Part shown: piece by piece, positions 11,074 to 23,776 of the stretch
Layout of the letters: each line of letters starts with the position of its first letter
Numbering within the stretch: the first letter of the stretch is position 1
Source: Dictyobacter aurantiacus
GTDB taxonomy: Bacteria > Chloroflexota > Ktedonobacteria > Ktedonobacterales > Ktedonobacteraceae
Assembly (NCBI RefSeq): GCF_003967515.1
Contig: NZ_BIFQ01000001.1
Span: 3,844,001 to 3,908,000, forward strand
DNA length: 64,000 nucleotides
Direction of reading: 5' to 3'
Notes under the pieces: model-generated
Told to the model about the DNA's origin: nothing
What the model saw: only the letters and a program-made list of their open reading frames with translations
The model's database searches: none
Translations under genes and position numbers: made by a program

Positions 11074-11371
11074 ACTTAATCCCTATGTCTAAAAATTCCA
11101 TTTCTTGCTGAGGTCTTTTCTTCCTTGAAAAGAACGAATGTAGTATATAAATTCATCAAAACACTTGTCAATAAAAAAGGAATTATATTTATATTTCTAT
11201 GCCGGGCAATTTTATGTAATGGGAGCGTATTTTATGGCTGAATTTGTCACGATGGTGATTTTGTCCATAGGCATAGTATGTTTGTTGTAGATATTTCCGG
11301 TTTGTTGTCCCGAGCAAAAATTTGGCTATGTAGCCATTGACAATCCGAAATGAGCGTGTTATAAATTTGAA
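11074..11371. other. Divergent promoter region
   Basis: About 300 bases between the kinase gene (minus) and the lys leader (plus), AT-rich. The lys promoter at 11337-11365 is the only element I can assign. Confidence 0.6.
11337..11365 (+). promoter_or_regulatory. Promoter of the lysine operon
   Basis: TTGACA at 11337-11342, a 17-base spacer and TATAAA at 11360-11365 make a near-consensus sigma-70 promoter. Transcription would start near 11372, shortly before the first T-box stem I. No comparable promoter is seen between the two T-boxes. Confidence 0.8.
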
Positions 11372-11403
11372 CAAGGAAAACACACAACCGCATAGCGAAA
11401 AAG

Positions 11404-11677
11404 CTTTGACAGGACAAGTAGCGATTATCCGTTACGGACAGAGAGTAGATAGCTGGTGAGAAGTCTACACGCTAACCAATCGCGAATAAGACCCTGAAGC
11501 TGCGAGAAGAAATCGCTTGTACGCGAAAGTAGAACTGCGCCGGTGGCCACCGTAATCGGGCCTGAGTATGTATCATACATACTTGCTGAGGTCAATATCG
11601 TGAGGTATTGGCGAATGCAGGTGGCAACACGAGAGTATAACGCTCTTCGTCCTGAGTAGTAGGATGAAGGGCTTTTT
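11404..11677 (+). promoter_or_regulatory. T-box leader 1 (tRNA-Lys sensing, putative)
   Basis: Stem I carries the AGTA loop-E sequence (11417-11420), and GCGATT (11421-11426) pairs with AATCGC (11478-11483). The opposite strand of the specifier loop is GAATAAGACC (11484-11493), in which AAG (11488-11490, Lys) followed by A is the best specifier. The T-box sequence is GCAGGTGGCAACACG near 11617-11631, with UGGC as the tRNA-end pairing bulge (11622-11625). A terminator follows: GCTCTTCGTCCT pairs with AGGATGAAGGGC, then T6 (11642-11677). The T-box deviates slightly from the usual AGGGTGGNACCGCG. It should stop transcription unless uncharged tRNA-Lys binds. Confidence 0.85.
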
Positions 11678-11730
11678 TGTTGGTCCTTTATCGATACGCA
11701 CATAGAAAAAGTAAAGATTGATAAGCGGTG

Positions 11731-12007
11731 TAGGGACAAGTAGCGGACCCCTGGGACATCCAGAGAGCGAACTGTTGGTGGAATGTTCGTATGACCAGCC
11801 CGTGAATAAGACCTGAAAGCTACGGAGAAGAAATCGCACGTGCGAAAGTAGAACTCTGTCGACCTGACCCTCGTTAACGGGTTCGCTACAGAACACACCA
11901 GGTGTTCTGCACGCCGAGGCCCATATCGTAAGGTATGGGTGAATGAGGGTGGTACCACGAGAGTTCGATGCTCTTCGTCCTTACAAGGGGGATGAAGGGC
12001 TTTTTTT
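11731..12007 (+). promoter_or_regulatory. T-box leader 2 (tRNA-Lys sensing, putative)
   Basis: This is a second complete T-box, with its specifier exactly 320 bases downstream of that of the first. It repeats GGACAAGTAGCG at the stem I base, GAATAAGACC in the specifier loop (AAG at 11808-11810) and the shared GCGAAAGTAGAAC linker. The T-box AGGGTGGTACCACG (11946-11959) is canonical, with UGGU at 11950-11953. Its terminator is GCTCTTCGTCCTT pairing with GGGGGATGAAGGGC, followed by T7 (about 11970-12007). lysW starts 57 bases later. Two terminators in series should give tighter and steeper control than one. Confidence 0.9.
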
Positions 12008-12063: not shown

Positions 12064-12228
12064 ATGGCGGCACAATGTCCAGAATGCGAAGCGAACGTAG
12101 AAGTACAGGGTCTGATGGTTGGCGAGATCACCTTTTGCCCTGACTGTAACGCGGAACTGGAAGTGATCAACGTAGAGCAACCTGAAGTAGCCCTGGCCCC
12201 AGAGGTCGAGGAAGATTGGGGAGAGTAA
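12064..12228 (+). CDS. lysW: LysW amino-group carrier protein
   Basis: 54 residues. The ATG at 12064 follows AGAGGAGAAAAGAAG; the frame is open further upstream, but that part lies in the T-box terminator. Two zinc-binding pairs (CPEC near residue 5 and CPDC near 26) and the acidic carboxyl terminus ending EDWGE are diagnostic. In this family the side chain of the last Glu is joined to alpha-aminoadipate, so that the pathway intermediates stay bound to the protein. It is the first gene of the operon, 4 bases before lysX. Confidence 0.96.
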
Positions 12229-12232
12229 CCCT

Positions 12233-13096
12233 ATGCGCCTGGCTATCCTGACATCGCGAGTTCGCGTGGAAGAGAAATTGTTGGTGGAAGCGTTGCGACA
12301 GCGCTCGATCGAATTTGACCTGATTGATGATGGTGAACTGCTATTCGATCTGGCGCAGCCGCAGGAGCGCTGGCACAGATATGATGCCGTGCTCTGCCGC
12401 AGCGTGAGTCAGTCCCGTGGCCTGGCTGTCTTACACGTGCTGGAGCACTGGGGGATCCCGGTGTTTAACTCGGCGGCCGTGACCGCTCTCTGCAACGACA
12501 AACTGTTGACGACCCTGGCGCTGATCCGCGCCGGACTGCCCGTGCCGCGCACGCTGCTGGCCTTCGATGCCGAGCGTGCTCTGGAGGGGATCGAGTCCGT
12601 CGGTTATCCGGCCGTCTTAAAACCGGTCACCGGTTCCTGGGGACGCCTGCTGGCGCGCGTCAATGATCGCGACGCCGCCGAAGCTGTACTGGAGCACCAG
12701 GAGACCCTGGGGTCGTATCAACACCATATCCATTATATTCAGCAGCATGTAGATAAGCCGAACCGCGACATCCGAGCCTTTGTCATCGGTGACCGCACGA
12801 TCTGTGCCATTTATCGCACCAGCGCCCACTGGGTGACAAATACCGCTCGCGGAGCTGTAACCGACAACTGTCCCGTGACTCCCGAATTGGATAGCCTGTG
12901 TACCCGTGCCGCGCGGGCCGTTGGCGGCGGCATCCTGGCGGTGGACGTCTTTGAGGATCCCGAGCGGGGCCTGCTGGTCAACGAGATCAACGGCACCATG
13001 GAGTTTCGCAATAGCATCGCTCCCACGGGCGTGAATATTCCGCAGGAGATGATCGAGTACGTATTGAGCAATGTGCGGGAAGGGGTGGCGTTATGA
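12233..13096 (+). CDS. lysX: LysX, LysW-aminoadipate ligase (ATP-grasp)
   Basis: 287 residues of the RimK/LysX ATP-grasp family. Visible blocks are [20 protein letters not shown] (substrate/ATP lid region), [19 protein letters not shown] (ATP-binding lysine and glycine loop) and [14 protein letters not shown] (metal-binding Glu/Asn near the end). It attaches alpha-aminoadipate to the LysW terminal Glu using ATP. ArgX paralogues use glutamate; the homocitrate genes downstream favour the lysine assignment here. The stop overlaps the next start by 4 bases (ATGA). Confidence 0.93.
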
Positions 13097-14151
13097 GCCG
13101 AGTACGCGTCGCCATCGTGGGCGGATCCGGCTATACCGGCGGCGAACTGATCCGCCTGCTCCTCTTCCATCCGCAGGTGGAGATCACGCAGGTGGCCTCG
13201 GGCAGCCAGGCGGGGCACTTCGTCCACAGCGCCCACCCGAATCTGCGCAAGATTAGCACACTGCGTTTCTGTCATCCCGACGACCTGACGTCTTGCGACG
13301 TACTGTTTCTCTGCCTGCCGCATGGCGTCTCTTCGGGCGAGATTGCGCGCTACCGGGCGATCGCCCCGCGCGTCATCGATCTGTCTGGCGATTTCCGCCT
13401 GCGCTCGCCCGAGCTGTATCAGCGCTGGTATGGACACGAGCATAAAGCTCCCTCGCTGCTATCCGAGGCGGTCTACGGTCTGCCCGAACTGCACCGTTCC
13501 GAGCTGACGGAGGCCACGCTGGTCAGCGGTACCGGATGTATGGCTACCACGTCGATCCTCGGCCTGGCACCGCTGTATCGCGCGGGCATTGTCAATCAAT
13601 CCATCCCATTGGTGGTGGAGGCCAAGGTTGGCTCTTCGGCGGCCGGCGCCAAGGCGGGACCTGCCAGTCACCATCCGGATCGCAGCGGGGCGGTACGCTC
13701 CTTTGAGCCAACGGGACATCGCCACACCGCCGAGCTGATTCAGGAACTGGGACAGTCGGGTGGCGAGCTGCGACAGACGGTCGCCTTCTCAGCCACCGCC
13801 ATCGAGTTGGTACGCGGTATCCTGGTGACCGCGCATGTGTTCCTGAACGAGCGCCTGGACGAGCGGGCCATCTGGCGCGTCTATCGCGAAGCCTATCAGC
13901 GCGAACCATTCATGCGCCTGGTCAAAGAGCGCAACGGTGTCTACCGCTATCCGGAACCCAAGATCCTGGCTGGCAGCAACTACTGTGACGTGGGTTTTGA
14001 GCTGGATGTTGAGCAGCAGCGCGTCGTCGTTATCGCCGCCCTGGACAATTTGATGAAGGGCGCCGCCGGCAACGGCGTGCAGGCCCTGAACTGCATGATG
14101 GGGTGGGACGAGACGCTGGGGCTGACCTTCCCCGGCCTGCATCCGGTGTAG
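13093..14151 (+). CDS. lysY: LysY, LysW-aminoadipyl-6-phosphate reductase
   Basis: 352 residues, homologous to ArgC N-acetyl-glutamyl-phosphate reductase. The amino end has the NADP-binding loop [14 protein letters not shown]. The catalytic cysteine is in [10 protein letters not shown], as in LysY proteins rather than the NPGCYPT of most Arg[16 protein letters not shown] and [12 protein letters not shown] follow. It reduces the phosphorylated, LysW-bound aminoadipate to the semialdehyde. It overlaps lysX and precedes lysZ by about 70 bases. Confidence 0.93.
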
Positions 14152-14224
14152 ACCACCGCTGAAGAACTGGCTTTCTTATACCCTTGAAGAGATGGACATA
14201 ACGAGAAGAGAAATGGAGCATGCG

Positions 14225-15139
14225 ATGACACTGGTCGTAAAAATTGGCGGGGGCGCGGGCGTCGCCACCACAGCTATTGTGCAAGAAATCGCCCGCCTGG
14301 TTGCTGAAGGGGAGCGCGTGGTTCTCCTGCACGGTGGTTCTGACCTGACCAATACGCTGTCGGAGCGGCTGGGGCATCCAATGCGCATGATCACTTCTCC
14401 TAGCGGCATGACCAGCCGCTATACCGATAGCGAGACCCTGCAGATCTTCGCCATGGCCGTGGCTGGTCAGATCAATACAGAGCTGGTGGCGCAGTTGCAG
14501 CAGGCGGGCGTGAATGCCTTCGGCATGGCTGGCGTAGATGGCCGTCTGCTGGTGGCCCGGCGCAAAGCGGTCGTGCGCTCGGTAACCCCCGAGGGCCGCG
14601 TACAGATCTTGCGCGACGACTACACCGGTCAGATCGAACAGGTGAACAGCGCGCTGGTGGAGCAGCTGTTGTCCGCCGGCTACACACCCGTGATCGCGCC
14701 GCTGGCCCTGAGCCACCAGGGAGAGCGCCTGAACGTGGATGGTGATCGGGCCGCCGCCGCCGTGGCTGCCGCCCTGCATGCCGATACGCTGGCGATCATG
14801 ACCAACGTTCCCGGTTTGCTGCAAGATCCACAGGATGCCTCGACCCTGATCGAGACCATTCCAGCCGCGCAACTGGATACCTACATGCAGTACGCCAGAG
14901 GGCGCATGCGCAAGAAATTACTGGGCGCCCAGGAGGCGTTGCAGGGTGGGGTCTCCCGCGTTTGCATCGGCAGCGCCTCGCTGCGTGCCGTCATTAATGG
15001 CGCCGGTACCACGATCACCACCGCAGAATCAGAAGAAGAGGAAGAGCAGCGCACTGCTTCTGATCCACGCACGACGGAAGCAGTGCGCCAGACAGATACA
15101 ATCCACACAGCGATGCGCGAGATGGTGTCGCTGAGCTAA
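14225..15139 (+). CDS. lysZ: LysZ, LysW-aminoadipate kinase
   Basis: 304 residues from an ATG at 14225 (GGAG six bases upstream; MTLVVKIGGGAG is the typical family start; in-frame upstream ATGs at 14192 and 14213 are less likely). It is an amino acid kinase fold enzyme of the ArgB type: VVKIGGGAG and VVLLHGGSD near the start, then LNVDGDRAAAAVAAALHAD for nucleotide binding. It phosphorylates LysW-bound aminoadipate. The carboxyl end carries about 40 extra residues rich in Glu (ESEEEEEQRTASD) that the family normally lacks. Confidence 0.92.
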   Translation: MTLVVKIGGGAGVATTAIVQEIARLVAEGERVVLLHGGSDLTNTLSERLGHPMRMITSPSGMTSRYTDSETLQIFAMAVAGQINTELVAQLQQAGVNAFGMAGVDGRLLVARRKAVVRSVTPEGRVQILRDDYTGQIEQVNSALVEQLLSAGYTPVIAPLALSHQGERLNVDGDRAAAAVAAALHADTLAIMTNVPGLLQDPQDASTLIETIPAAQLDTYMQYARGRMRKKLLGAQEALQGGVSRVCIGSASLRAVINGAGTTITTAESEEEEEQRTASDPRTTEAVRQTDTIHTAMREMVSLS

Positions 15140-15176: not shown

Positions 15177-17474
15177 ATGGGCACAAATCTAATTGAACTG
15201 GAAAACACATATACGAGCGGTGTCTATGGGAAGCGACCTGTCGCCATCGTGCGCGGTCAGGGTGCCACATTATGGGACGCTGAGGGACGCAGCTATATTG
15301 ATTGCATGGCCGGACATGGTGTGGCGAATATCGGACATGGGCGCAGCGAGATCGCGGCGGCCCTGGCGGCCCAGGCGCAGCGACTGATCACCTGTCCCGA
15401 AGTTGTCTATAATGATGTGCGTGCGCGCCTGTTAGAGCGCCTGGCGCAGATCACGCCGGCCGGGTTAGAGCATTTCTTCCTCTGCAACAGTGGCACCGAG
15501 GCGGTTGAGGGAGCCTTCAAGTTCGCCCGCCTGGCTACGGGCCGCACCGGTATCGTCGCCACGCTGCGCGGCTTCCACGGTCGCAGCATGGGCGCGCTCT
15601 CCGCCACCTGGGAGAAGCACTACCGCGAGCCCTTCGCGCCGCTGGTCCCGGATGTTTCACATATCCGCTACAACGATCTGAGCGCCGCCGAGGCGGCCAT
15701 CACCGACAATACCGCGGCCGTCATCATTGAGCTGGTGCAGGCTGAAGGCGGCGTACACGTTGCCCAGGAGGCCTATGTACAGGGATTGGCCGCCCTCTGT
15801 CGTGAGCGCGGCGCCCTGTTGATTATCGATGAGATCCAGACGGGCTTTGGACGTACTGGTACCCTGTTCGCCTGTGAGCAATATGGCGTAGAGCCAGACA
15901 TCCTCTGCCTGGCTAAATCCCTGGCCGGAGGCGTTCCTATGGGAGCTGTCTGCCTGGGACAGCGCGTGATGGAGAGCGGCCGCGTCACCCGTGGCGCACA
16001 CGGCAGCACCTTTGGCGGCAATCCTCTCGCCTGCGCCGCCGCCCTGGCGACGCTTGATGTGCTCGAAAGAGAAAATCTGGCGACCCGTGCCGTAGAACTG
16101 GGCGAGCACGCGCGTGAGCGCCTGCGCTCCATTCAATCTCCCCTTATTCGTGAGGTGCGTGGTCGCGGCCTGCTCATCGGGATCGAACTGAGCAAGCGCG
16201 TCCAGCCGTATCTGGAAGCACTCTGTGAGCGTGGTGTACTGGCCTTGCCGGCTGGTCCCAATGTCCTGCGCCTGCTGCCGCCGCTGGTGATCAGCCAGGA
16301 GCAGCTAGACCAGGCCATCGACATCATCAGCGAGATACTGACCGGATCTACCAGTTCAGTCCCGCTACCCGAGGTTGTCCCTGTGCAGAACCGCGAGGTT
16401 GACCTTTTACAGCGCATGTTGACCATCCCCAGCCTCTCACGACAGGAAGGGGCGCTGGCCCGCTACCTGGTTGAGCAGGCGCGGCAGATGGGACTGCACG
16501 CCTACATCGATGAGGTAGGCAACTTCGTGGCTAGCACCCACGCGGAACTAGATGGCCAGCAGCCGGTCGTTTTGTTGGGGCATATGGATACGGTGCCGGG
16601 CAATATTCCGGTACGCATCGAGAATGGTCTGCTCTTTGGTCGCGGGGCCGTCGATGCCAAGGGACCGCTGGCCGCCTTTATCTGTGCCGCCGCCCGCGTG
16701 GCGTCCGGCGGTGCGCCTGCCCGTCCTATCGTCGTCGTCGGGGCGGTTGAAGAAGAAGCGGCGACCTCGCGTGGTGCGCGTGGAGTCGTCAACCGCTATC
16801 AGCCATCGGCCTGTATCATTGGCGAGCCAAGCAGCAGTCAGGCCGTCACCATCGGATACAAAGGACGTCTGCTCATCGATGGCTGCGTCTCGCACCAATC
16901 AAGTCACAGTGCTGGACCTTTGCAGAGTAGCAATGAAGTGGCCACCGCTTTCTGGGAGCGCGTGCGTCGCCATGCCGATGAATGGAACCAGGAGCACGCG
17001 GGGGCGTCAACCTTCGCCGCCTTGCTGCCGTCGCTGCGCCGCATCAACAGCGAGCACGACGGCCTGGAGGAGCGTACCAGCTTCACCATCGGCTATCGTC
17101 TGCCGCCCAACTTTGACATTGCCGCCTTACGCGAGCAACTGCAGCGCTGGGCCTACACCGACGACATTCACCTGATCTTCTCAGGTGAAGAGGTCGCCTT
17201 TCAGACGAACCGCGCCATTCCCCTGGCCCGAGCCTTCATGGCCGCCATCCGCGCCACCGGCGGGCAGCCAACCTTTAAAAACAAAACGGGAACGTCAGAT
17301 ATGAATGTTGTGGGCCCGGTCTGGGGGCAGAACATCGTCGCCTATGGACCTGGCGACTCACGCCTCGATCATACGCCCAATGAGCACATCCGGGTGGATG
17401 AATATACCCACGCAATTGATGTGCTGGAACATGTTCTGCACGAAACTGCATCGCAAAGGGAAATAGCATTATGA
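15177..17474 (+). CDS. LysJ-LysK fusion: LysW-aminoadipate-semialdehyde aminotransferase + LysW-lysine hydrolase
   Basis: 765 residues joining two normally separate enzymes. Residues 1 to about 390 are a class III PLP aminotransferase (LysJ/ArgD type): [28 protein letters not shown] and the PLP lysine K247 in CLAKSLAGG. From about 405 to 765 there is an M20 metallopeptidase (LysK): [12 protein letters not shown] (H469), [29 protein letters not shown] and a final DHTPNEH metal ligand. LysJ converts the bound semialdehyde to lysine; LysK frees lysine from LysW. Both halves keep their catalytic residues, with only a short linker and no internal stop. The start follows GGAAGGAGG; the end overlaps the homocitrate synthase start by 4 bases. 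Confidence 0.93.
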
Positions 17475-18619
17475 GATCTCTGGCTATTCTGGATAGCACC
17501 CTGCGCGAGGGGGAGCAATTCATCAAAACCTACTTCAACCTGGAGCAGCGTGTGATGATTGCGCGCCTGCTCGATCGGCTCGGGGTGACGTTCATTGAGG
17601 TACCCTCGCCCATCGCTTCGCCTGAGACGCGCGAGGCTATCCAGGCCATCTGCGCGCTCAACCTGCGCTCGCACGTGGTGGCCCATGTGCGCTGTGTCGA
17701 GGCCGATGTGCAGGCTGCGCTGGATACCGATGTCTATGGCCTGAACCTGTTCTTCGGTACCTCTCAGGAACTGCGCTCATATAGCCATGGCAGAAGGATC
17801 GAGCAGATCGCCACCGAGGCGGTCCCGTTGATCCGCCGCATTCGTGAGGCCGGCCGCTACGTGCGCTTCTCGGCCGAAGATGCCTTTCGCAGCGACCTGG
17901 TCGATCTGCTGACGGTCTTTGATGCTGTAGTCGATGCTGGTGTCGAACGCATCGGCCTGCCAGATACAGTTGGTATAGCGACCCCACGTCAGGTTGACCG
18001 TCTGGTGAGCCTGATCGCCAGTCGCTATCCCAATGTCGGCATCGAGTTTCATGGGCATAACGATACTGGCTGCGCCATCGCCAACACCATCTCGGCCTTT
18101 GAGGCCGGGGCGGACTGCCTGGACGTCACCGTCATGGGCATCGGCGAGCGCAACGGCATCGCCTCTCTGAGCGGCATCATCTCACAACTCTATATCCATT
18201 ATCCTGATCTGCTCGCTACCTACGATCTGACCCAGCTGGTGGAGCTGGACCAGTATGTAGCGGACTGTCTGAATATCAATATTCCCTATAATATGCCGAT
18301 TACCGCCCCCAGCGCCTTTACGCATCGCGCCGGGGTGCATACTAAAGCGGTCCTGCGCAATCCACATGCGTATGAGATCCTCAATCCTACCGACTTTGGT
18401 GTCGCGCGCCATGTCGATATTGGATCGCGCTTCACCGGACGCTATGCCGTAGGGCATAGAGCCGTCTCATTGGGACTGCAACTGACTCCTGAAGAGCTCG
18501 CGCGACTCACGCAGGCGCTGAAAGAGCGTGCGGAGAGCGGCTCGCTCAGCGATGAAGAGGTCAATACATTTATTCTTGCCTGGTATGAAGAGAAAGGAAG
18601 CCTGGTATGGGAACGCTAG
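17471..18619 (+). CDS. hcs: Homocitrate synthase
   Basis: 382 residues of the DRE-TIM metallolyase family. DSTLREGEQF near residue 8 gives the Asp-Arg-Glu motif, and EFHGHNDTGCAIANT holds the metal-binding His-x-His. GIGERNGIASLSG and HRAGVHTKA are typical of homocitrate rather than isopropylmalate synthases, as is the length without a regulatory LeuA domain. It condenses 2-oxoglutarate with acetyl-CoA, the first step of the pathway. It overlaps the gene before by 4 bases and the gene after by 13. Confidence 0.92.
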   Translation: MRSLAILDSTLREGEQFIKTYFNLEQRVMIARLLDRLGVTFIEVPSPIASPETREAIQAICALNLRSHVVAHVRCVEADVQAALDTDVYGLNLFFGTSQELRSYSHGRRIEQIATEAVPLIRRIREAGRYVRFSAEDAFRSDLVDLLTVFDAVVDAGVERIGLPDTVGIATPRQVDRLVSLIASRYPNVGIEFHGHNDTGCAIANTISAFEAGADCLDVTVMGIGERNGIASLSGIISQLYIHYPDLLATYDLTQLVELDQYVADCLNINIPYNMPITAPSAFTHRAGVHTKAVLRNPHAYEILNPTDFGVARHVDIGSRFTGRYAVGHRAVSLGLQLTPEELARLTQALKERAESGSLSDEEVNTFILAWYEEKGSLVWER

Positions 18620-19875
18620 CTGAAGAGATTTTTAGTTATAAATTGGGACGCCCCGTTCATGCGGGGGAGACTGTGGTGGTGGATGTCGATCATGTGATGA
18701 GCCATGATACGACGACTCCCCTGGCCATCAAAGCTTTCCGCAAGCTGGCCAAACAGAATAACGGTCGTGTGTTTGATCAGAAGCGTTCGCATATCGTTTT
18801 TGACCATATCATCCCGGCCGCGACCATCGCGGCGGCCACCCTGCATCGCGAGGTACGCTCGTTCGCCCAGGAGCAGGAGATCCCGATTTTGCAGGAAGGC
18901 ATCTGTCACCAGGTGATGCCCGAGAAGGGCTTTGTGCTGCCGGGCAGCATCATCGTGGGCGCTGATAGCCACTCCTGCACTTATGGAGCCTTTGGCGCCT
19001 TTGGCACTGGTATGGGTTCGACCGATATCGGCGTGGCCTACGCCACCGGCCGCAGCTGGTTCCGCGTGCCGGAGACCATCAATGTCAACATTACCGGCAC
19101 CCTGCCTCCAGGAGTGTTCGCCAAAGATATCTCGCTTGAGATCGTGCGTCGTCTGGGTGTGGATGGCGCCAACTATCGCGCTATCGAATATACCGGCGAG
19201 GTGATCGAGAACTTCTCGATGAGCGAACGTATGACCTTCTCCAACATGGCCATCGAGATGGGTGGTAAAGCGGGACTGATCGCGGCCGATGCCACCACGC
19301 AGGAATGGCTACGCGGTCGCACCGATAAAGAGTATCCGCTGCTGCGTGCCCAGAATCCGCACTACGAGCGGGTGATCGAGATCGATGTCACCAACATGCA
19401 GCCGCTGGTGGCCTGTCCCCCTGACGTCAACATCGTGCATCCGGCCGCAGAGGTGCAGGACGTCCAGATCGATCAGGTCTTCCTGGGTACCTGCACCAAT
19501 GGTCGCCTGGACGATCTGGAGATCGCTGCCAACATTCTGCGCGGCCGCACGATCAGCCCGAGCCTGCGCATGGTTGTCATCCCCGCCTCGCGTGAGATCT
19601 ATCTGGAGGCCATGCGCCGTGGTTATCTGGAAATCTTCGCTCAGGCCGGCGCCTCCGTTGGCACGCCCGGCTGTGGACCCTGCATCGGACGCCACTTCGG
19701 CGTGCTGGCTCCCGGAGAGCGCGCGCTGACCACGATGAATCGCAACTTTACCGGTCGCATGGGTGATCCCACCGCCGAAATCTACCTGGGCAGTCCCGCG
19801 ACCATCGCCGCCACCGCGCTGACCGGCCATATCACCGATCCACGCAGCGTCTTACTGGCGGAAAATCCCGCCTAG
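18607..19875 (+). CDS. lysT: Homoaconitase large subunit
   Basis: 422 residues of the aconitase superfamily, large subunit of the two-subunit type. GADSHSCTYGAFGAFGTGMG and the FLGTCTNGR and GTPGCGPCIGRH blocks provide the three cysteines for the 4Fe-4S cluster. It isomerises homocitrate to homoisocitrate together with LysU. Its start lies inside the homocitrate synthase gene. Its stop TAG forms the first bases next to the terminal repeat of a foldback element (19874-20029), so the final codons may have been shaped by that insertion. Confidence 0.93.
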   Translation: MGTLAEEIFSYKLGRPVHAGETVVVDVDHVMSHDTTTPLAIKAFRKLAKQNNGRVFDQKRSHIVFDHIIPAATIAAATLHREVRSFAQEQEIPILQEGICHQVMPEKGFVLPGSIIVGADSHSCTYGAFGAFGTGMGSTDIGVAYATGRSWFRVPETINVNITGTLPPGVFAKDISLEIVRRLGVDGANYRAIEYTGEVIENFSMSERMTFSNMAIEMGGKAGLIAADATTQEWLRGRTDKEYPLLRAQNPHYERVIEIDVTNMQPLVACPPDVNIVHPAAEVQDVQIDQVFLGTCTNGRLDDLEIAANILRGRTISPSLRMVVIPASREIYLEAMRRGYLEIFAQAGASVGTPGCGPCIGRHFGVLAPGERALTTMNRNFTGRMGDPTAEIYLGSPATIAATALTGHITDPRSVLLAENPA

Positions 19876-20072: not shown

Positions 20073-20567
20073 ATGGGACGCATCTGGAAAGTCGGTGACA
20101 ACATCAATACCGACCTGATCATTCCTGGCCGCTATAACGTGACGACCGATCATGCACAGCTGGCGAAATACTGCCTCTACGAGGCCTATCCCGAATTTTC
20201 ACAGGGCGTGCAGCCCGGCGACATCTTGATGGGAGGCCACAACTTCGGTTGTGGCTCCTCCCGTGAGCACGCGCCGACCGCCATCCTGGCCAACCAGGTC
20301 AAAGTCGTGATCGCGCGTAGCTTCGCGCGCATCTTCTACCGCAACGCCGTCAACATCGGCCTGCCGGTCCTGGTCTGTGAGGACGCTGTGCTCAACAGCG
20401 AAGCCGGGCAGGAGCTCGACGTTAATCTTGAGACTGGTGAGATCCGTAACCTCACCACCGGCCAGACCTTCCAGGCCGAGCCGCTCGACCCATTTGTCGC
20501 GCGCATCGTGGCCGCTGGTGGCATCATCAATTACATCGAAGCCAACAACGGCCAATTGGTATATTAA
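20073..20567 (+). CDS. lysU: Homoaconitase small subunit
   Basis: 164 residues, the swivel domain of the two-subunit homoaconitase. MGRIWKVGDNINTDLIIPGR and GHNFGCGSSREHAPTA are the substrate-binding signatures. The ATG follows AGAAGGAGAAAAAGAG. It forms a complex with LysT. The stop TAA adjoins the left end of another inverted repeat (20566-20676). Confidence 0.94.
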   Translation: MGRIWKVGDNINTDLIIPGRYNVTTDHAQLAKYCLYEAYPEFSQGVQPGDILMGGHNFGCGSSREHAPTAILANQVKVVIARSFARIFYRNAVNIGLPVLVCEDAVLNSEAGQELDVNLETGEIRNLTTGQTFQAEPLDPFVARIVAAGGIINYIEANNGQLVY

Positions 20568-20676
20568 AACGCAAACGACGAATCCCCGTAGGTGCGCCCC
20601 TTGCGGGCGCTTGCCGCGAAGCGGCCCTGTGCCCGCAAGGGGCGCACGTTTCACCAACGCGGGATTTGTGCGTTTT
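20566..20676. repeat. Foldback inverted repeat between lysU and hicdh
   Basis: About 111 bases. The outer arms AAAACGCAAACGACGAATCC and, inverted, AAAACGCACAAATCCCGCG are imperfect; the inner arms GTGCGCCCCTTGCGGGC and GCCCGCAAGGGGCGCAC are perfect, closing on a small GC-rich loop. The left end overlaps the lysU stop and the right end sits just before the next ribosome binding site. Confidence 0.7.
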
Positions 20677-20690
20677 GGGAGAAGGGTAAT

Positions 20691-21788
20691 ATGCACAACC
20701 GACAATTTCATAATCCGCCGCAGGTGTGCGTGGTTGCAGGGGATGATGCGGCCCCTGAGGTGGTGCGGCCGACGGTAGAGATTCTGCGTGAGCTGGCGCC
20801 GGAGATCCGTTTTACGGAGGCGCCGTGTGGACGCGAGGCCCAGGCGCGGTATGGAACACCGTTTCCGGATGTGACGCGTGAGGCGATCGACGCAGCGGAC
20901 TGCACGCTCTTCGGCGCCAGCGGCGGACCCAGCCGTCCAATCCTGTGGTATCTGCGCTGGAACAAGGAGACCTATATCAATGTGCGCTCCGTGCGCTGGA
21001 TCCCCGGCTATCGCAGCCCCATGCAGCATCCGGAGCGCATCGATTATGTGATCGCGCGCGATAACCTGGAGGGGATGTATCCCCCACGCGAGGGCGATGT
21101 GGCCGAACTGGCGGCCCTGCCCAGCAGCGGTAGCTGGTGGATGGCCCCGCCGGTCGAGAAGGCGGGCGCCTACTCGATCAAGGTGAGCACCGATGAGCAG
21201 ATGCAGCGCGTGGCTAACCATGCCTGTCAGCTCGCCTTGCAGCGGCAGGCCGCCGGCTATCCCGGACGTGTCACACTGGGCGCCAAATACTCGATCCAGC
21301 CGCGCACCGATGGCCGCTTCCGCGCCATCGTCAAAGAGGCGGTCAGCCAGCATCCTTCCCTGACCTACCAGGAGTTCCTGGTCGATGACATGGCGCGCCG
21401 CCTGGTTGCTTCCCCGGAACAGCTGGATGTGGTCGTGCTGGGGAACGAGCATGGAGATATTCTGGCCGACGTCTCCAGTGGTACCATCGGGGGACTTGGC
21501 CTCTCACCCAGCGCCTGCTATGGTGAGGACTACGCCTACTTTGAGCCGGTCCATGGGTCCGCCCCCGACCTGGCCGGCCAGGGCATCATCAATCCTACCG
21601 CCATGTTATTATCGGGCGCGTTGATGCTTGATTACCTGGGGTATAATAAACAGGCAAGTGCTTTAACGTCCGCCATCGAACAGACCTATCGAGAAGGCAG
21701 CCTGCTCCCGGTCGACCAGGGTGGACAGGCAGGAACGAGTGAATTCGTGCAGGCCATCCGGGCGCGCTTGTCAGAGCATGGATCATAA
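20691..21788 (+). CDS. hicdh: Homoisocitrate dehydrogenase (isopropylmalate dehydrogenase family)
   Basis: 365 residues from the ATG at 20691, which follows GGGAGAAGGGTAAT; the frame is open 33 codons further upstream, through the hairpin, and that part is rejected. NEHGDILADVSSGTIGGLG holds the metal-binding aspartates of the family, and FEPVHGSAPDLAGQGIINP is the NAD-binding region. RWNKETYINVRSVRWIPG and ARDNLEGMYPPREG are the substrate region. It oxidises homoisocitrate to 2-oxoadipate. It belongs to an unusual branch compared with Thermus enzymes, so activity on isocitrate or isopropylmalate cannot be excluded. It is the last gene of the operon. Confidence 0.87.
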   Translation: MHNRQFHNPPQVCVVAGDDAAPEVVRPTVEILRELAPEIRFTEAPCGREAQARYGTPFPDVTREAIDAADCTLFGASGGPSRPILWYLRWNKETYINVRSVRWIPGYRSPMQHPERIDYVIARDNLEGMYPPREGDVAELAALPSSGSWWMAPPVEKAGAYSIKVSTDEQMQRVANHACQLALQRQAAGYPGRVTLGAKYSIQPRTDGRFRAIVKEAVSQHPSLTYQEFLVDDMARRLVASPEQLDVVVLGNEHGDILADVSSGTIGGLGLSPSACYGEDYAYFEPVHGSAPDLAGQGIINPTAMLLSGALMLDYLGYNKQASALTSAIEQTYREGSLLPVDQGGQAGTSEFVQAIRARLSEHGS

Positions 21789-22114
21789 ACGCCCATTCCC
21801 CCGTGAATAAAGAAAGATAAATTGGGCGCCAGTGAGGGAGCGTTGCTCCCCTTATGCTGACCATGAATGAGATCGTAATGTATAACCATTCCGCCGGTAA
21901 GAGGCGGAATGGTTATGTTTGGTATATGTTGTTGGTTGTGAGGCTCGCCGTACGAGAAGAAATTGCTCGGCATGTCGATGTGTGGATTATTCAGGCTATC
22001 CCCTATAGCAATTCTTGCCCTGTCATGAAGACGCTTGCAAGCTAAACTGATACAATAATAAGCATCGAAAAATACTAAAGATATAAAGCGAGCTATAATT
22101 GGAGATAGTGAACA
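21789..22114. other. Gene-free stretch after the lys operon
   Basis: 326 bases between hicdh and lysS. Two hairpins are seen: GGGAGC/GCTCCC at about 21836-21850 and ATAACCATTCCGCC/GGCGGAATGGTTAT at 21882-21916. Neither is followed by a clear T run. No T-box motif is visible before lysS. Confidence 0.55.
21882..21916 (+). terminator. Hairpin, possible end of the lys operon
   Basis: Perfect 14-bp arms with a 7-base loop. The downstream sequence GTTTGG is only weakly T-rich, so termination is possible but not certain. Confidence 0.45.
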
Positions 22115-23776
22115 ATGAAAGCTGATTGGGTAACAAAAGTCGCTGACCGTGTCGAAGCCAGCGTGCGACAGCGTAAGGGTGAGAACGCCACTATCGTGTG
22201 CGCCTCCGGCATCAGTCCCTCAGGTCCGATTCACCTGGGTAATCTGCGCGAGCCATTTACCGTCCACCTGGTGGTTGAGGAACTGCGTGGCCGTGGGTGG
22301 AAGGTGGAGCATATCCATTCCTGGGACGACTATGACCGTCTGCGCAAGGTGCCAGCCGGTATCCCGGCCGAGTACGCGCAGTACATCGGCATGCCCTATG
22401 CCGATATCCCCGACCCTTTTGGGGAGTATGATTCATATGCCACGCGCTATATCACCGACTTTACAAACGGTTTGAGCCGCCTGGGTATCCGACCCCGCTA
22501 TATTCGCCAGTCACAGGCCTATCGTCGTGGCGATTATCGCGAACAAATCAAGATGGCTATTCGCCAGCGTGGAGAGATCTTCGATATCCTGGCCGAGTAT
22601 CAAAATCTAGAGGGCCAGAAAGAGACCGTGGACGAGCGCCGCGCTGCCTATTATCCCTTTAAGCCCTACTGTGACAATTGTCATAAGGACATGACGCACC
22701 TGACCTCGTATCGCGATGAGGATGCTTTCCTTACCTACGTCTGCGATAACTGCGGGCACGAGGGCAGCTATAGCCTGAACGAGCGCATCGACGGCAAGCT
22801 TGTCTGGAAGGTTGACTGGCCCATGCGTTGGAGCTACGAGCAGGTCGACTTTGAGCCCGGTGGCGAGGACCACTCCTCTCCCGGCAGTAGCTATACCGTG
22901 GGACAGCGTATCGTGCAGAAGGTGTATGGCGCCGTGGCACCGCAGTTTATCGGCTACGCCTTCGTCGGCATGGGCGGCCGCTCCAAGATCTCAAGCTCGG
23001 TCGGTACCACGGCCACCGTCTCTTCGGCGCTTGAGATTATCGAGCCCGCTATCCTGCGCTGGCTCTATGCGCGCCGTGCCAACAATCAGGCCTTTGATAT
23101 CGATTATGGTCAGGGTCTGCTGCGTCTCTACGAGGAGTGGGACGCTCTGGTGCGCCAGATCAACAAGGGGACGGCCAACGAGGTCAATCAGCGCCTGTTC
23201 GAGCGCGCTACGCGCACCAGCACCGATGAGATCGTCTATACCCATAAGGCAGTGCCGTTCCCGTTGCTGACTTCGGTCATCGATGTGACCCAGGCCAATG
23301 AAGAGCAGGTCCTGCGCATCATTTCGCAGACCCTGCCGGAACTGCAGGATCTGGGTACGTTGCGTGCCGAACTGGAGCCGCGCTTCACCTGCGCCCTCAA
23401 CTGGGTCAACAACTACCTGCCCGACGATGAGCGCACGCAGATTCGCACTAGCTTTGATAGCGAGGCCTTCGCCAGCTTCTCTGAGATGGACCAGGCCAGC
23501 ATCCGCATGCTGGCTGAGCGCCTGGACGACTCCTGGAACCTGGCTAGCCTGACCGAACTGATGTACAGTATCCCCAAGGTCGTACGCGGCCTGGCGGTAG
23601 ATACTCCTCCCAACGACGAGCTGAAGCAGGCGCAGCGCTCCTTCTTTATTGCGTTGTACAACCTGATCTGCGGCCGCGATACCGGTCCGCGCATTCCAAC
23701 GCTTCTGCTCTCCATTGGCCTGGAGCGCGCCAAGCAGCTGCTAACGCCCACTGCCGTGGCGGTGGCGCAAAAATAG
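22115..23776 (+). CDS. lysS: Class I lysyl-tRNA synthetase
   Basis: 553 residues of the archaeal-type class I LysRS, structurally unrelated to the usual bacterial class II enzyme. The HIGH-like motif is PSGPIHLGN (about 36-44) and the KMSKS equivalent is KISSS at 291-295. Two Cys pairs (CDNCHKD and CDNCGHEG, near residues 189 and 210) suggest a zinc site. It charges tRNA-Lys, the molecule that the T-boxes upstream of lysW would sense. The start follows TTGGAGATAGTGAACA. No truncation. Confidence 0.95.
   Translation: MKADWVTKVADRVEASVRQRKGENATIVCASGISPSGPIHLGNLREPFTVHLVVEELRGRGWKVEHIHSWDDYDRLRKVPAGIPAEYAQYIGMPYADIPDPFGEYDSYATRYITDFTNGLSRLGIRPRYIRQSQAYRRGDYREQIKMAIRQRGEIFDILAEYQNLEGQKETVDERRAAYYPFKPYCDNCHKDMTHLTSYRDEDAFLTYVCDNCGHEGSYSLNERIDGKLVWKVDWPMRWSYEQVDFEPGGEDHSSPGSSYTVGQRIVQKVYGAVAPQFIGYAFVGMGGRSKISSSVGTTATVSSALEIIEPAILRWLYARRANNQAFDIDYGQGLLRLYEEWDALVRQINKGTANEVNQRLFERATRTSTDEIVYTHKAVPFPLLTSVIDVTQANEEQVLRIISQTLPELQDLGTLRAELEPRFTCALNWVNNYLPDDERTQIRTSFDSEAFASFSEMDQASIRMLAERLDDSWNLASLTELMYSIPKVVRGLAVDTPPNDELKQAQRSFFIALYNLICGRDTGPRIPTLLLSIGLERAKQLLTPTAVAVAQK

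What the first reader, a model, noticed from the sequence alone, without database searches (positions are those of the whole stretch)
11404..12007. Tandem T-box leaders controlling an aminoadipate-pathway lysine operon
Two complete T-boxes, specifiers 320 bases apart, each with AGTA loop, GAATAAGACC specifier loop, T-box sequence and its own terminator, sit between one strong promoter and lysW. T-box control of class I LysRS and of amino acid genes is established; serial T-boxes driving a LysW-carrier operon is, as far as I know, not a described arrangement. Two terminators in series should give steep, low-leak induction when tRNA-Lys is uncharged.
Basis: partly seen in the sequence, partly recalled or inferred. 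Interest (0 to 1): 0.82.

Follow-up and report, generated by a model that had tools for sequence, protein, structure and literature searches.

The report
Two lysine T-boxes in series
A bacterial lysine-making operon is preceded by two complete RNA switches in a row that read uncharged lysine tRNA; the pair is shared by relatives, double switches of this kind are known on other operons, but this target and an odd mismatch in the first switch look new and can be tested.

Summary
Window 11397-11657 and 11719-11985 each match the full Rfam T-box model (92.5 and 72.3 bits; E 6.5e-19 and 1e-13; both below the gathering score of 93). Each has a Lys specifier AAG, an antiterminator and an overlapping terminator; one promoter precedes both; a LysW-type aminoadipate lysine operon follows.

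The genome is a Dictyobacter-like Ktedonobacterium. In its family 26 of 29 genomes searched have lysX; all 22 with a complete leader have the pair, four are cut by contig ends. The two lysX-bearing genomes of sister families have one T-box each. Both switches show conserved pairing in both states.

Double T-boxes sensing one tRNA are known in Firmicutes and already proposed to sharpen the response, so the principle is not new. New, as far as my searches show, are the operon, the lineage and a conserved asymmetry: in six genomes (window's genus plus Tengunoibacter) the first T-box bulge is UGGCAAC, which cannot fully pair with A73 of tRNA-Lys(CUU); the second is UGGUACC, which can. Whether the first switch is a weak gate, reads another tRNA, or is decaying is open. 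Steep induction is untested.

The parts
11337..11365 (+). promoter-like site TTGACA-N17-TATAAA, the only good one ahead of both T-boxes
   Evidence: similar site in all 21 other tandem leaders; not reported by the stricter scan
11397..11657 (+). T-box 1 (TB1), RF00230, full length
   Evidence: 92.5 bits, E 6.5e-19
11488..11490 (+). TB1 specifier AAG (Lys)
   Evidence: model alignment; unpaired in fold; position
11618..11654 (+). TB1 antiterminator
   Evidence: pair counts
11622..11628 (+). TB1 bulge UGGCAAC; C at the variable position does not pair with A73
   Evidence: tRNA-Lys
11642..11678 (+). TB1 terminator hairpin and T run
11719..11985 (+). T-box 2 (TB2), RF00230, full length
   Evidence: 72.3 bits, E 1e-13
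11808..11810 (+). TB2 specifier AAG (Lys)
11946..11982 (+). TB2 antiterminator
   Evidence: pair counts
11950..11956 (+). TB2 bulge UGGUACC; U pairs with A73
11970..12007 (+). TB2 terminator hairpin and T run
12064..12228 (+). lysW (carrier protein)
   Evidence: TIGR01206 E 1.3e-13, 50.6 bits, just below its cut-off of 53.2
12233..13096 (+). lysX
   Evidence: TIGR02144 343 bits, over cut-off
13093..14151 (+). lysY (ArgC-type reductase)
   Evidence: best model argC TIGR01850, 383 bits; LysY by position
14192..15139 (+). lysZ ([LysW]-aminoadipate kinase)
   Evidence: NF010659 337 bits, over cut-off
15177..17474 (+). lysJ-lysK fusion (transaminase plus [LysW]-lysine hydrolase)
   Evidence: LysJ model 460.6 bits (below cut-off 700), hydrolase NF003367 402.6 bits (over cut-off)
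17471..18619 (+). homocitrate synthase
   Evidence: TIGR02146 398 bits, below cut-off 413.55
18607..19875 (+). lysT, homoaconitase large subunit family
   Evidence: TIGR01343 550.5 bits, over cut-off
20073..20567 (+). lysU, homoaconitase small subunit family
   Evidence: TIGR02087 187.5 bits, over cut-off
20592..21788 (+). homoisocitrate/isopropylmalate-type dehydrogenase
   Evidence: TIGR02088 229.8 bits, below cut-off 409.8; start codon uncertain, homology begins about residue 44
22115..23776 (+). class I lysyl-tRNA synthetase; same transcript not shown
   Evidence: TIGR00467 360.7 bits, over cut-off; 326-nt gap with a hairpin read by eye at 21884-21914

Best explanation
Two transcription-attenuating T-box riboswitches stand in series in one leader. 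RNA polymerase starts at 11337-11365 and meets TB1, then TB2. At each box an uncharged tRNA-Lys(CUU) pairs with the AAG specifier and its acceptor end with the T-box bulge, which holds the antiterminator and prevents the overlapping terminator. With charged tRNA-Lys both terminators form. Only transcripts that pass both reach lysWXYZ-JK-hcs-lysTU-hicdh, so read-through probabilities multiply. Shown here: the two structures, the matching specifiers, the single promoter, conservation of both states in relatives, and the cognate tRNA gene. Inferred: tRNA binding, antitermination, the shape of the response. In the window's genus and Tengunoibacter TB1 has lost the fourth acceptor-end pair (UGGC against A73); I think it most likely works as a weaker gate than TB2, with its antiterminator otherwise kept.
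For: Full-length RF00230 matches with AAG in the specifier columns. tRNA-Lys(CUU) gene in the genome. One promoter, conserved. Antiterminator and terminator share the same strand and both form in each box; in relatives TB1 antiterminator 99.0% and terminator 97.0% of cells paired, TB2 99.6% and 98.9%, against 39-75% when partners are slid. In the five genomes of the window's genus TB1 helix A1 changed A-U to C-G on both sides. Pair present in 22 of 22 complete leaders of the family, single in the two lysX-bearing genomes of other families in the class. LysW-type operon downstream, conserved in relatives.
Against: No experiment. Scores are below the Rfam gathering score. Two-sided change in the TB1 antiterminator is confined to one pair, no more pairs than in shuffles (444 of 500 shuffles reach it). 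TB1 bulge UGGCAAC departs from UGGNACC at a base that stabilises the domain and mismatches A73, so TB1 may respond poorly or not at all. tRNA binding and steepness were not tested.
Confidence: 0.82

Rival explanations
1. Only TB2 regulates. TB1 is a decaying duplicate in this clade: its bulge no longer reads tRNA-Lys and its terminator is merely leaky.
For: UGGCAAC in TB1 of six genomes whose tRNA-Lys(CUU) all carry A73; of 18 other T-box bulges read in this genome, the 17 whose downstream gene was assigned pair with a discriminator of the matching tRNA set, by my hand reading.
Against: TB1 keeps specifier, AGTA and AGAGA loops, a 13-pair terminator with T run, and a compensatory pair in helix A1. 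Promoter-to-lysW transcripts must cross it. The same bulge is shared by six genomes while the rest of TB1 diverges to 56-93% by domain. Long direct repeats would allow easy deletion.
Confidence: 0.2
2. TB1 in this clade reads a second tRNA with G73, for example tRNA-Asn(GUU) as a near-cognate of AAG, so the two boxes form a two-input gate.
For: UGGC pairs fully with G73 (duplex -4.2 against -1.9 kcal/mol for A73); tRNA-Asn here has G73; the B. cereus lysK T-box was reported to respond to uncharged tRNA-Asn as well as tRNA-Lys (passages of PMC2916919).
Against: AAG with GUU makes only two pairs (+3.2 against +0.3 kcal/mol for CUU); the specifier stays AAG in all six. No test of binding.
Confidence: 0.06
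3. The duplicate is a recent, neutral tandem copy without function of its own.
For: Some genera show near-identical 3' parts of TB1 and TB2 (97-100% in L133, 98-99% in L121).
Against: In the window TB1 and TB2 are only 65-75% identical by domain, while TB1 and TB2 are each 78-93% identical to their own counterpart in D. kobayashii; the six TB1 stems group apart from the TB2 stems (no support values read); pair in 22 of 22 complete leaders. High 3' identity beside 75-79% in stem I points to conversion.
Confidence: 0.03

Closest known systems
Tandem (double) T-boxes of Firmicutes, e.g. trp, ilv-leu, thrS, his transporter (PMC12452182, PMC9413887; passages seen)
   Same: Two complete T-boxes of the same specificity in series, each with its own terminator; sharper or pseudo-cooperative response proposed there
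   Different: Those passages give Bacillota/Firmicutes and other amino acids, and call the duplications potentially recent; here a family of Ktedonobacteria, lysine, an older duplication by the trees, and an upstream copy with a non-matching bulge in one clade
B. cereus lysK T-box (class I LysRS; PMC2916919, passages seen)
   Same: Lys-reading T-box; genome holds both a class I and a class II LysRS, and no T-box hit lies beside the class II gene
   Different: Single T-box on one synthetase gene; here two T-boxes ahead of a biosynthetic operon
Single Lys T-box ahead of LysW-pathway genes (L134, L135; L103 from a bin named only 'bacterium'; L089 Thermomicrobium)
   Same: Same kind of target and Lys-type specifier in L134, L103 and L089
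   Different: One T-box only. In L089 no lysW was detected between T-box and lysX
LysW-mediated aminoadipate lysine pathway of Thermus and archaea (recalled)
   Same: lysW, X, Y, Z, J, K, homocitrate synthase, homoaconitase and dehydrogenase genes
   Different: lysJ and lysK fused; T-box leader

Membership tests
T-box riboswitch (RF00230) | Match to the covariance model over its length | tested here: met
   1-219 of 219 in both, E 6.5e-19 and 1e-13; below the gathering score of 93. PMC12452182 (passage) reports that this threshold excludes genuine T-boxes
T-box riboswitch (RF00230) | Specifier codon in the stem I loop with a cognate tRNA and a fitting downstream gene | tested here: met
   AAG in both; tRNA-Lys(CUU); lysine operon
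T-box riboswitch (RF00230) | UGGN bulge pairs with the tRNA discriminator | tested here: inconclusive
   TB2 UGGU with A73: met. TB1 UGGC with A73: not met
T-box riboswitch (RF00230) | 3' ACC of the bulge | tested here: inconclusive
   TB2 ACC: met. TB1 AAC: not met
T-box riboswitch (RF00230) | Mutually exclusive antiterminator and terminator | tested here: met
T-box riboswitch (RF00230) | Uncharged tRNA induces read-through | not testable with these tools
   needs transcription assay
Tandem T-box (independent switches in series) | Two full T-boxes, each with its expression platform, on one transcript | tested here: met
   single transcript inferred from the one promoter
LysW-type aminoadipate operon | lysW, lysX and lysZ present with LysW-specific models | tested here: met
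   lysX and lysZ over cut-off; lysW 50.6 bits against a cut-off of 53.2
LysW-type aminoadipate operon | Route used for lysine rather than another product | tested here: inconclusive
   dapB not found at E<=0.001, Lys T-boxes; but two lysA-type matches over cut-off

The most novel reading that the evidence does not exclude
In the window's genus and Tengunoibacter the upstream T-box has been retuned at its acceptor-end contact (UGGC) to a G73 tRNA such as tRNA-Asn, or to no acceptor match at all, so that the lysine operon is read through two unequal gates in series: a two-input or two-threshold tRNA logic element built from an old T-box duplication.
Probability: 0.3. Interest if true: 0.75.

Novelty: new variant of a known kind. 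Interest (0 to 1): 0.5.

Why it matters
[quoted passage not shown] Here nature supplies a series: one T-box, two matched T-boxes, and two T-boxes of which the first has lost the discriminator match, all ahead of lysine genes in related bacteria. That makes it possible to ask what the second box adds and how much the discriminator pair matters. It also extends T-box control to LysW-carrier lysine synthesis, outside Firmicutes.

Tried and rejected
Rfam at the gathering threshold gave no hits in the window; the E-value mode was needed. The whole-window E-value list also holds 30 other rows, mostly eukaryotic microRNA families, taken as chance. Another specifier frame was rejected because the model alignment places AAG in both boxes. 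In some relatives (L114 both boxes, L121, L122 second box, L123) the loop reads AAA or is ambiguous between AAA and AAG; different isoacceptors for the two boxes of one genome were considered and not supported except possibly in L122. An internal promoter between the boxes was considered; best score 9 of 12. Stronger terminator in TB2 as a general design: 17 of 21 leaders, but only 3 of 6 in the clade with UGGC, and the folds sometimes include a small upstream hairpin. T-box control of other LysX loci: regex on 30 loci found a T-box core upstream near lysX only in the Ktedonobacteria and L089, plus L103 3.2 kb upstream; Rfam on four of the others found none. A script that measured antiterminators failed and was rewritten; another failed and was rewritten.

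L122 was left out of the pair-count alignments because its second terminator holds a long insertion; L123, with one visible T-box, was counted with TB2.

Full report
Identity of the feature. The Rfam T-box model matches window 11397-11657 (92.5 bits) and 11719-11985 (72.3 bits) over its whole length, E 6.5e-19 and 1e-13 in the whole window. Both fall short of the gathering score of 93, so the default scan is empty. A passage of PMC12452182 says that this threshold excludes genuine T-boxes. The genome has 22 matches at E<=10, 20 of them at E<=1e-5, ahead of genes such as leuS, serS, proS, valS, pheS, trpS, thrS, glyS, hisG and metX. The two in the window are the only pair of hits that lie next to each other in the same orientation with under 100 nt between them.

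Anatomy. In each box AAG lies in the specifier columns and is unpaired in the fold, the AGTA and AGAGA elements are present, and the 3' 94 bases of the two are 80% identical. Each has an antiterminator around the bulge and a 13-pair terminator with 6-7 T that uses the same strand. The promoter is TTGACA-N17-TATAAA at 11337-11365. The stricter scan did not list it.

Target. The genes are lysW, lysX, an ArgC-type lysY, lysZ, a lysJ-lysK fusion, homocitrate synthase, homoaconitase subunits and a homoisocitrate-type dehydrogenase. lysX and lysZ exceed LysW-specific cut-offs; lysW (50.6 against 53.2), homocitrate synthase, LysJ and the dehydrogenase are below the equivalog cut-offs. dapB was not found at E<=0.001, which suggests that this is the lysine route, although two lysA-type genes are present. 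A class I LysRS starts 326 nt further on; a class II LysRS lies elsewhere. By homology hits within the flanks held, the class I gene follows in L076, L078, L079 and L080 but was not seen in L077, L083, L084 or L085.

Conservation. lysX was found in 28 of 47 genomes of the class: 26 of 29 in the window's family, two elsewhere. Rfam found two T-boxes ahead of lysX in 21 of the 25 other family genomes. Of the remaining four, three show one T-box core within 36-215 nt of a contig end and one has no upstream sequence. With the window this is 22 of 22 complete leaders. The two genomes of other families have one each (L134, L135). Thermomicrobium L089 has one, without a detected lysW. L103 has one ahead of hcs-lysTU-lysWXYZ. 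Four other LysX loci gave no T-box by Rfam. Genomes named were tied to G handles by their contig coordinates (for example L076 D. kobayashii and G024).

Structure under selection. On 21 TB1 leaders (18 distinct) 99.0% of antiterminator and 97.0% of terminator cells pair; on 22 TB2 rows (21 distinct; one is the single visible box of L123) 99.6% and 98.9%. Sliding the partners lowers this to 39-75%. Both-sided changes: TB1 antiterminator one pair, not more than shuffles (444 of 500); TB1 terminator three (12 of 500); TB2 antiterminator three and terminator five (0 of 500). In the five genomes of the window's genus TB1 carries C-G where the others have A-U in helix A1.

Age. Within the window the boxes share 69, 65 and 75% in stem I, middle and 3' domains, while TB1 shares 91, 79 and 93% and TB2 91, 78 and 88% with their counterparts in D. 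kobayashii. In the stem I tree the six TB1 of the window's genus and Tengunoibacter group together, apart from their TB2 (support values not read). In other genera the middle and 3' domains of the two boxes are nearly identical while stem I is not, which suggests conversion; in L116 and L117 the two stem I also group by genome.

The asymmetry. TB1 has UGGCAAC in six genomes (five of the window's genus, and Tengunoibacter), UGGCACC in L115; the other TB1 and every TB2 have UGGU. Both tRNA-Lys genes found in the window's genome have A73, and so do 17 of 17 tRNA-Lys(CUU) genes read in relatives, among them the five other genomes with UGGCAAC; none was read for L115's genome. The first look of the tRNA search scored 150 of 223 candidates, so a missed tRNA-Lys is not excluded. 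By hand, the 17 other T-box bulges of this genome with an assigned gene pair, by Watson-Crick or wobble, with a discriminator of the matching tRNA set. A review passage assigns UGGN to the tRNA end and ACC to stability of the domain (PMC7583486), so TB1 departs at both. Since polymerase must cross TB1, I favour a weaker gate over a dead one, but the data do not decide.

What is known. PMC9413887 says that double T-boxes are reported for amino acid operons of diverse Firmicutes, perhaps by recent duplication, and might give a sharper response (passage). PMC12452182 describes tandem T-boxes on trp, ilv-leu, thr operons and thrS of Bacillota and expects pseudo-cooperative, digital behaviour (passages). 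PMC2916919 reports Lys-reading T-boxes on LysRS genes in four species of 891 genomes, each with a second LysRS without one, and a response to tRNA-Asn (passages). PMC3766115 counts Chloroflexi among phyla with T-boxes (passage). Searches pairing LysW or Ktedonobacter with T-box gave no paper on this leader.

Verdict. A real, conserved pair of T-boxes in series on a new target in a little-studied lineage; the principle is known, the discriminator mismatch in the first box is the new and testable part.

Noticed in passing
L002 1501-1818 (minus); L172-L177: The T-box ahead of leuS (108.9 bits) contains a complete tRNA-Ala(GGC) gene just before its T-box sequence, with tRNA-Ala(CGC) upstream. The same order, tRNA-Ala(CGC), tRNA-Ala(GGC), then a T-box core 20-35 nt on, was seen in six other family genomes (L172-L177) and not in three other stretches fetched (L178-L180), which may not be the same locus.
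   Followed up: partly
L158-L163; L164: In six genomes of the Thermogemmatispora group the tRNA-Lys(CUU) gene is interrupted in the anticodon loop by a 642-667 nt insert that begins GTGCG and ends AC; Rfam group II intron matches in the two loci scanned (59.0 and 50.6 bits in L158 and L161). A tRNA 3' half preceded by similar sequence lies in L164. Paper listings showed none that I recognised as describing it.
   Followed up: partly
L006 1501-2006 (minus): metX leader with a SAM riboswitch (77.9 bits) followed by a T-box (93.0 bits): two different methionine-related sensors in series.
   Followed up: no
window 15177-17474: lysJ and lysK are one reading frame here and align as one piece in 9 of 10 family loci compared; in D. 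kobayashii (L076) the match breaks into two frames. lysZ of L077 also breaks into two frames. Sequencing error not excluded.
   Followed up: partly
window 11629, 11957 and other T-boxes of the genome: The base after the bulge is A (ACCACG) in most T-boxes here, giving A-U where a review passage describes a conserved G-U wobble as the main sensor of charged tRNA.
   Followed up: no
window 21884-21914: Inverted repeat AACCATTCCGCC...GGCGGAATGGTT between the dehydrogenase and LysRS genes, without a T run; read by eye.
   Followed up: no
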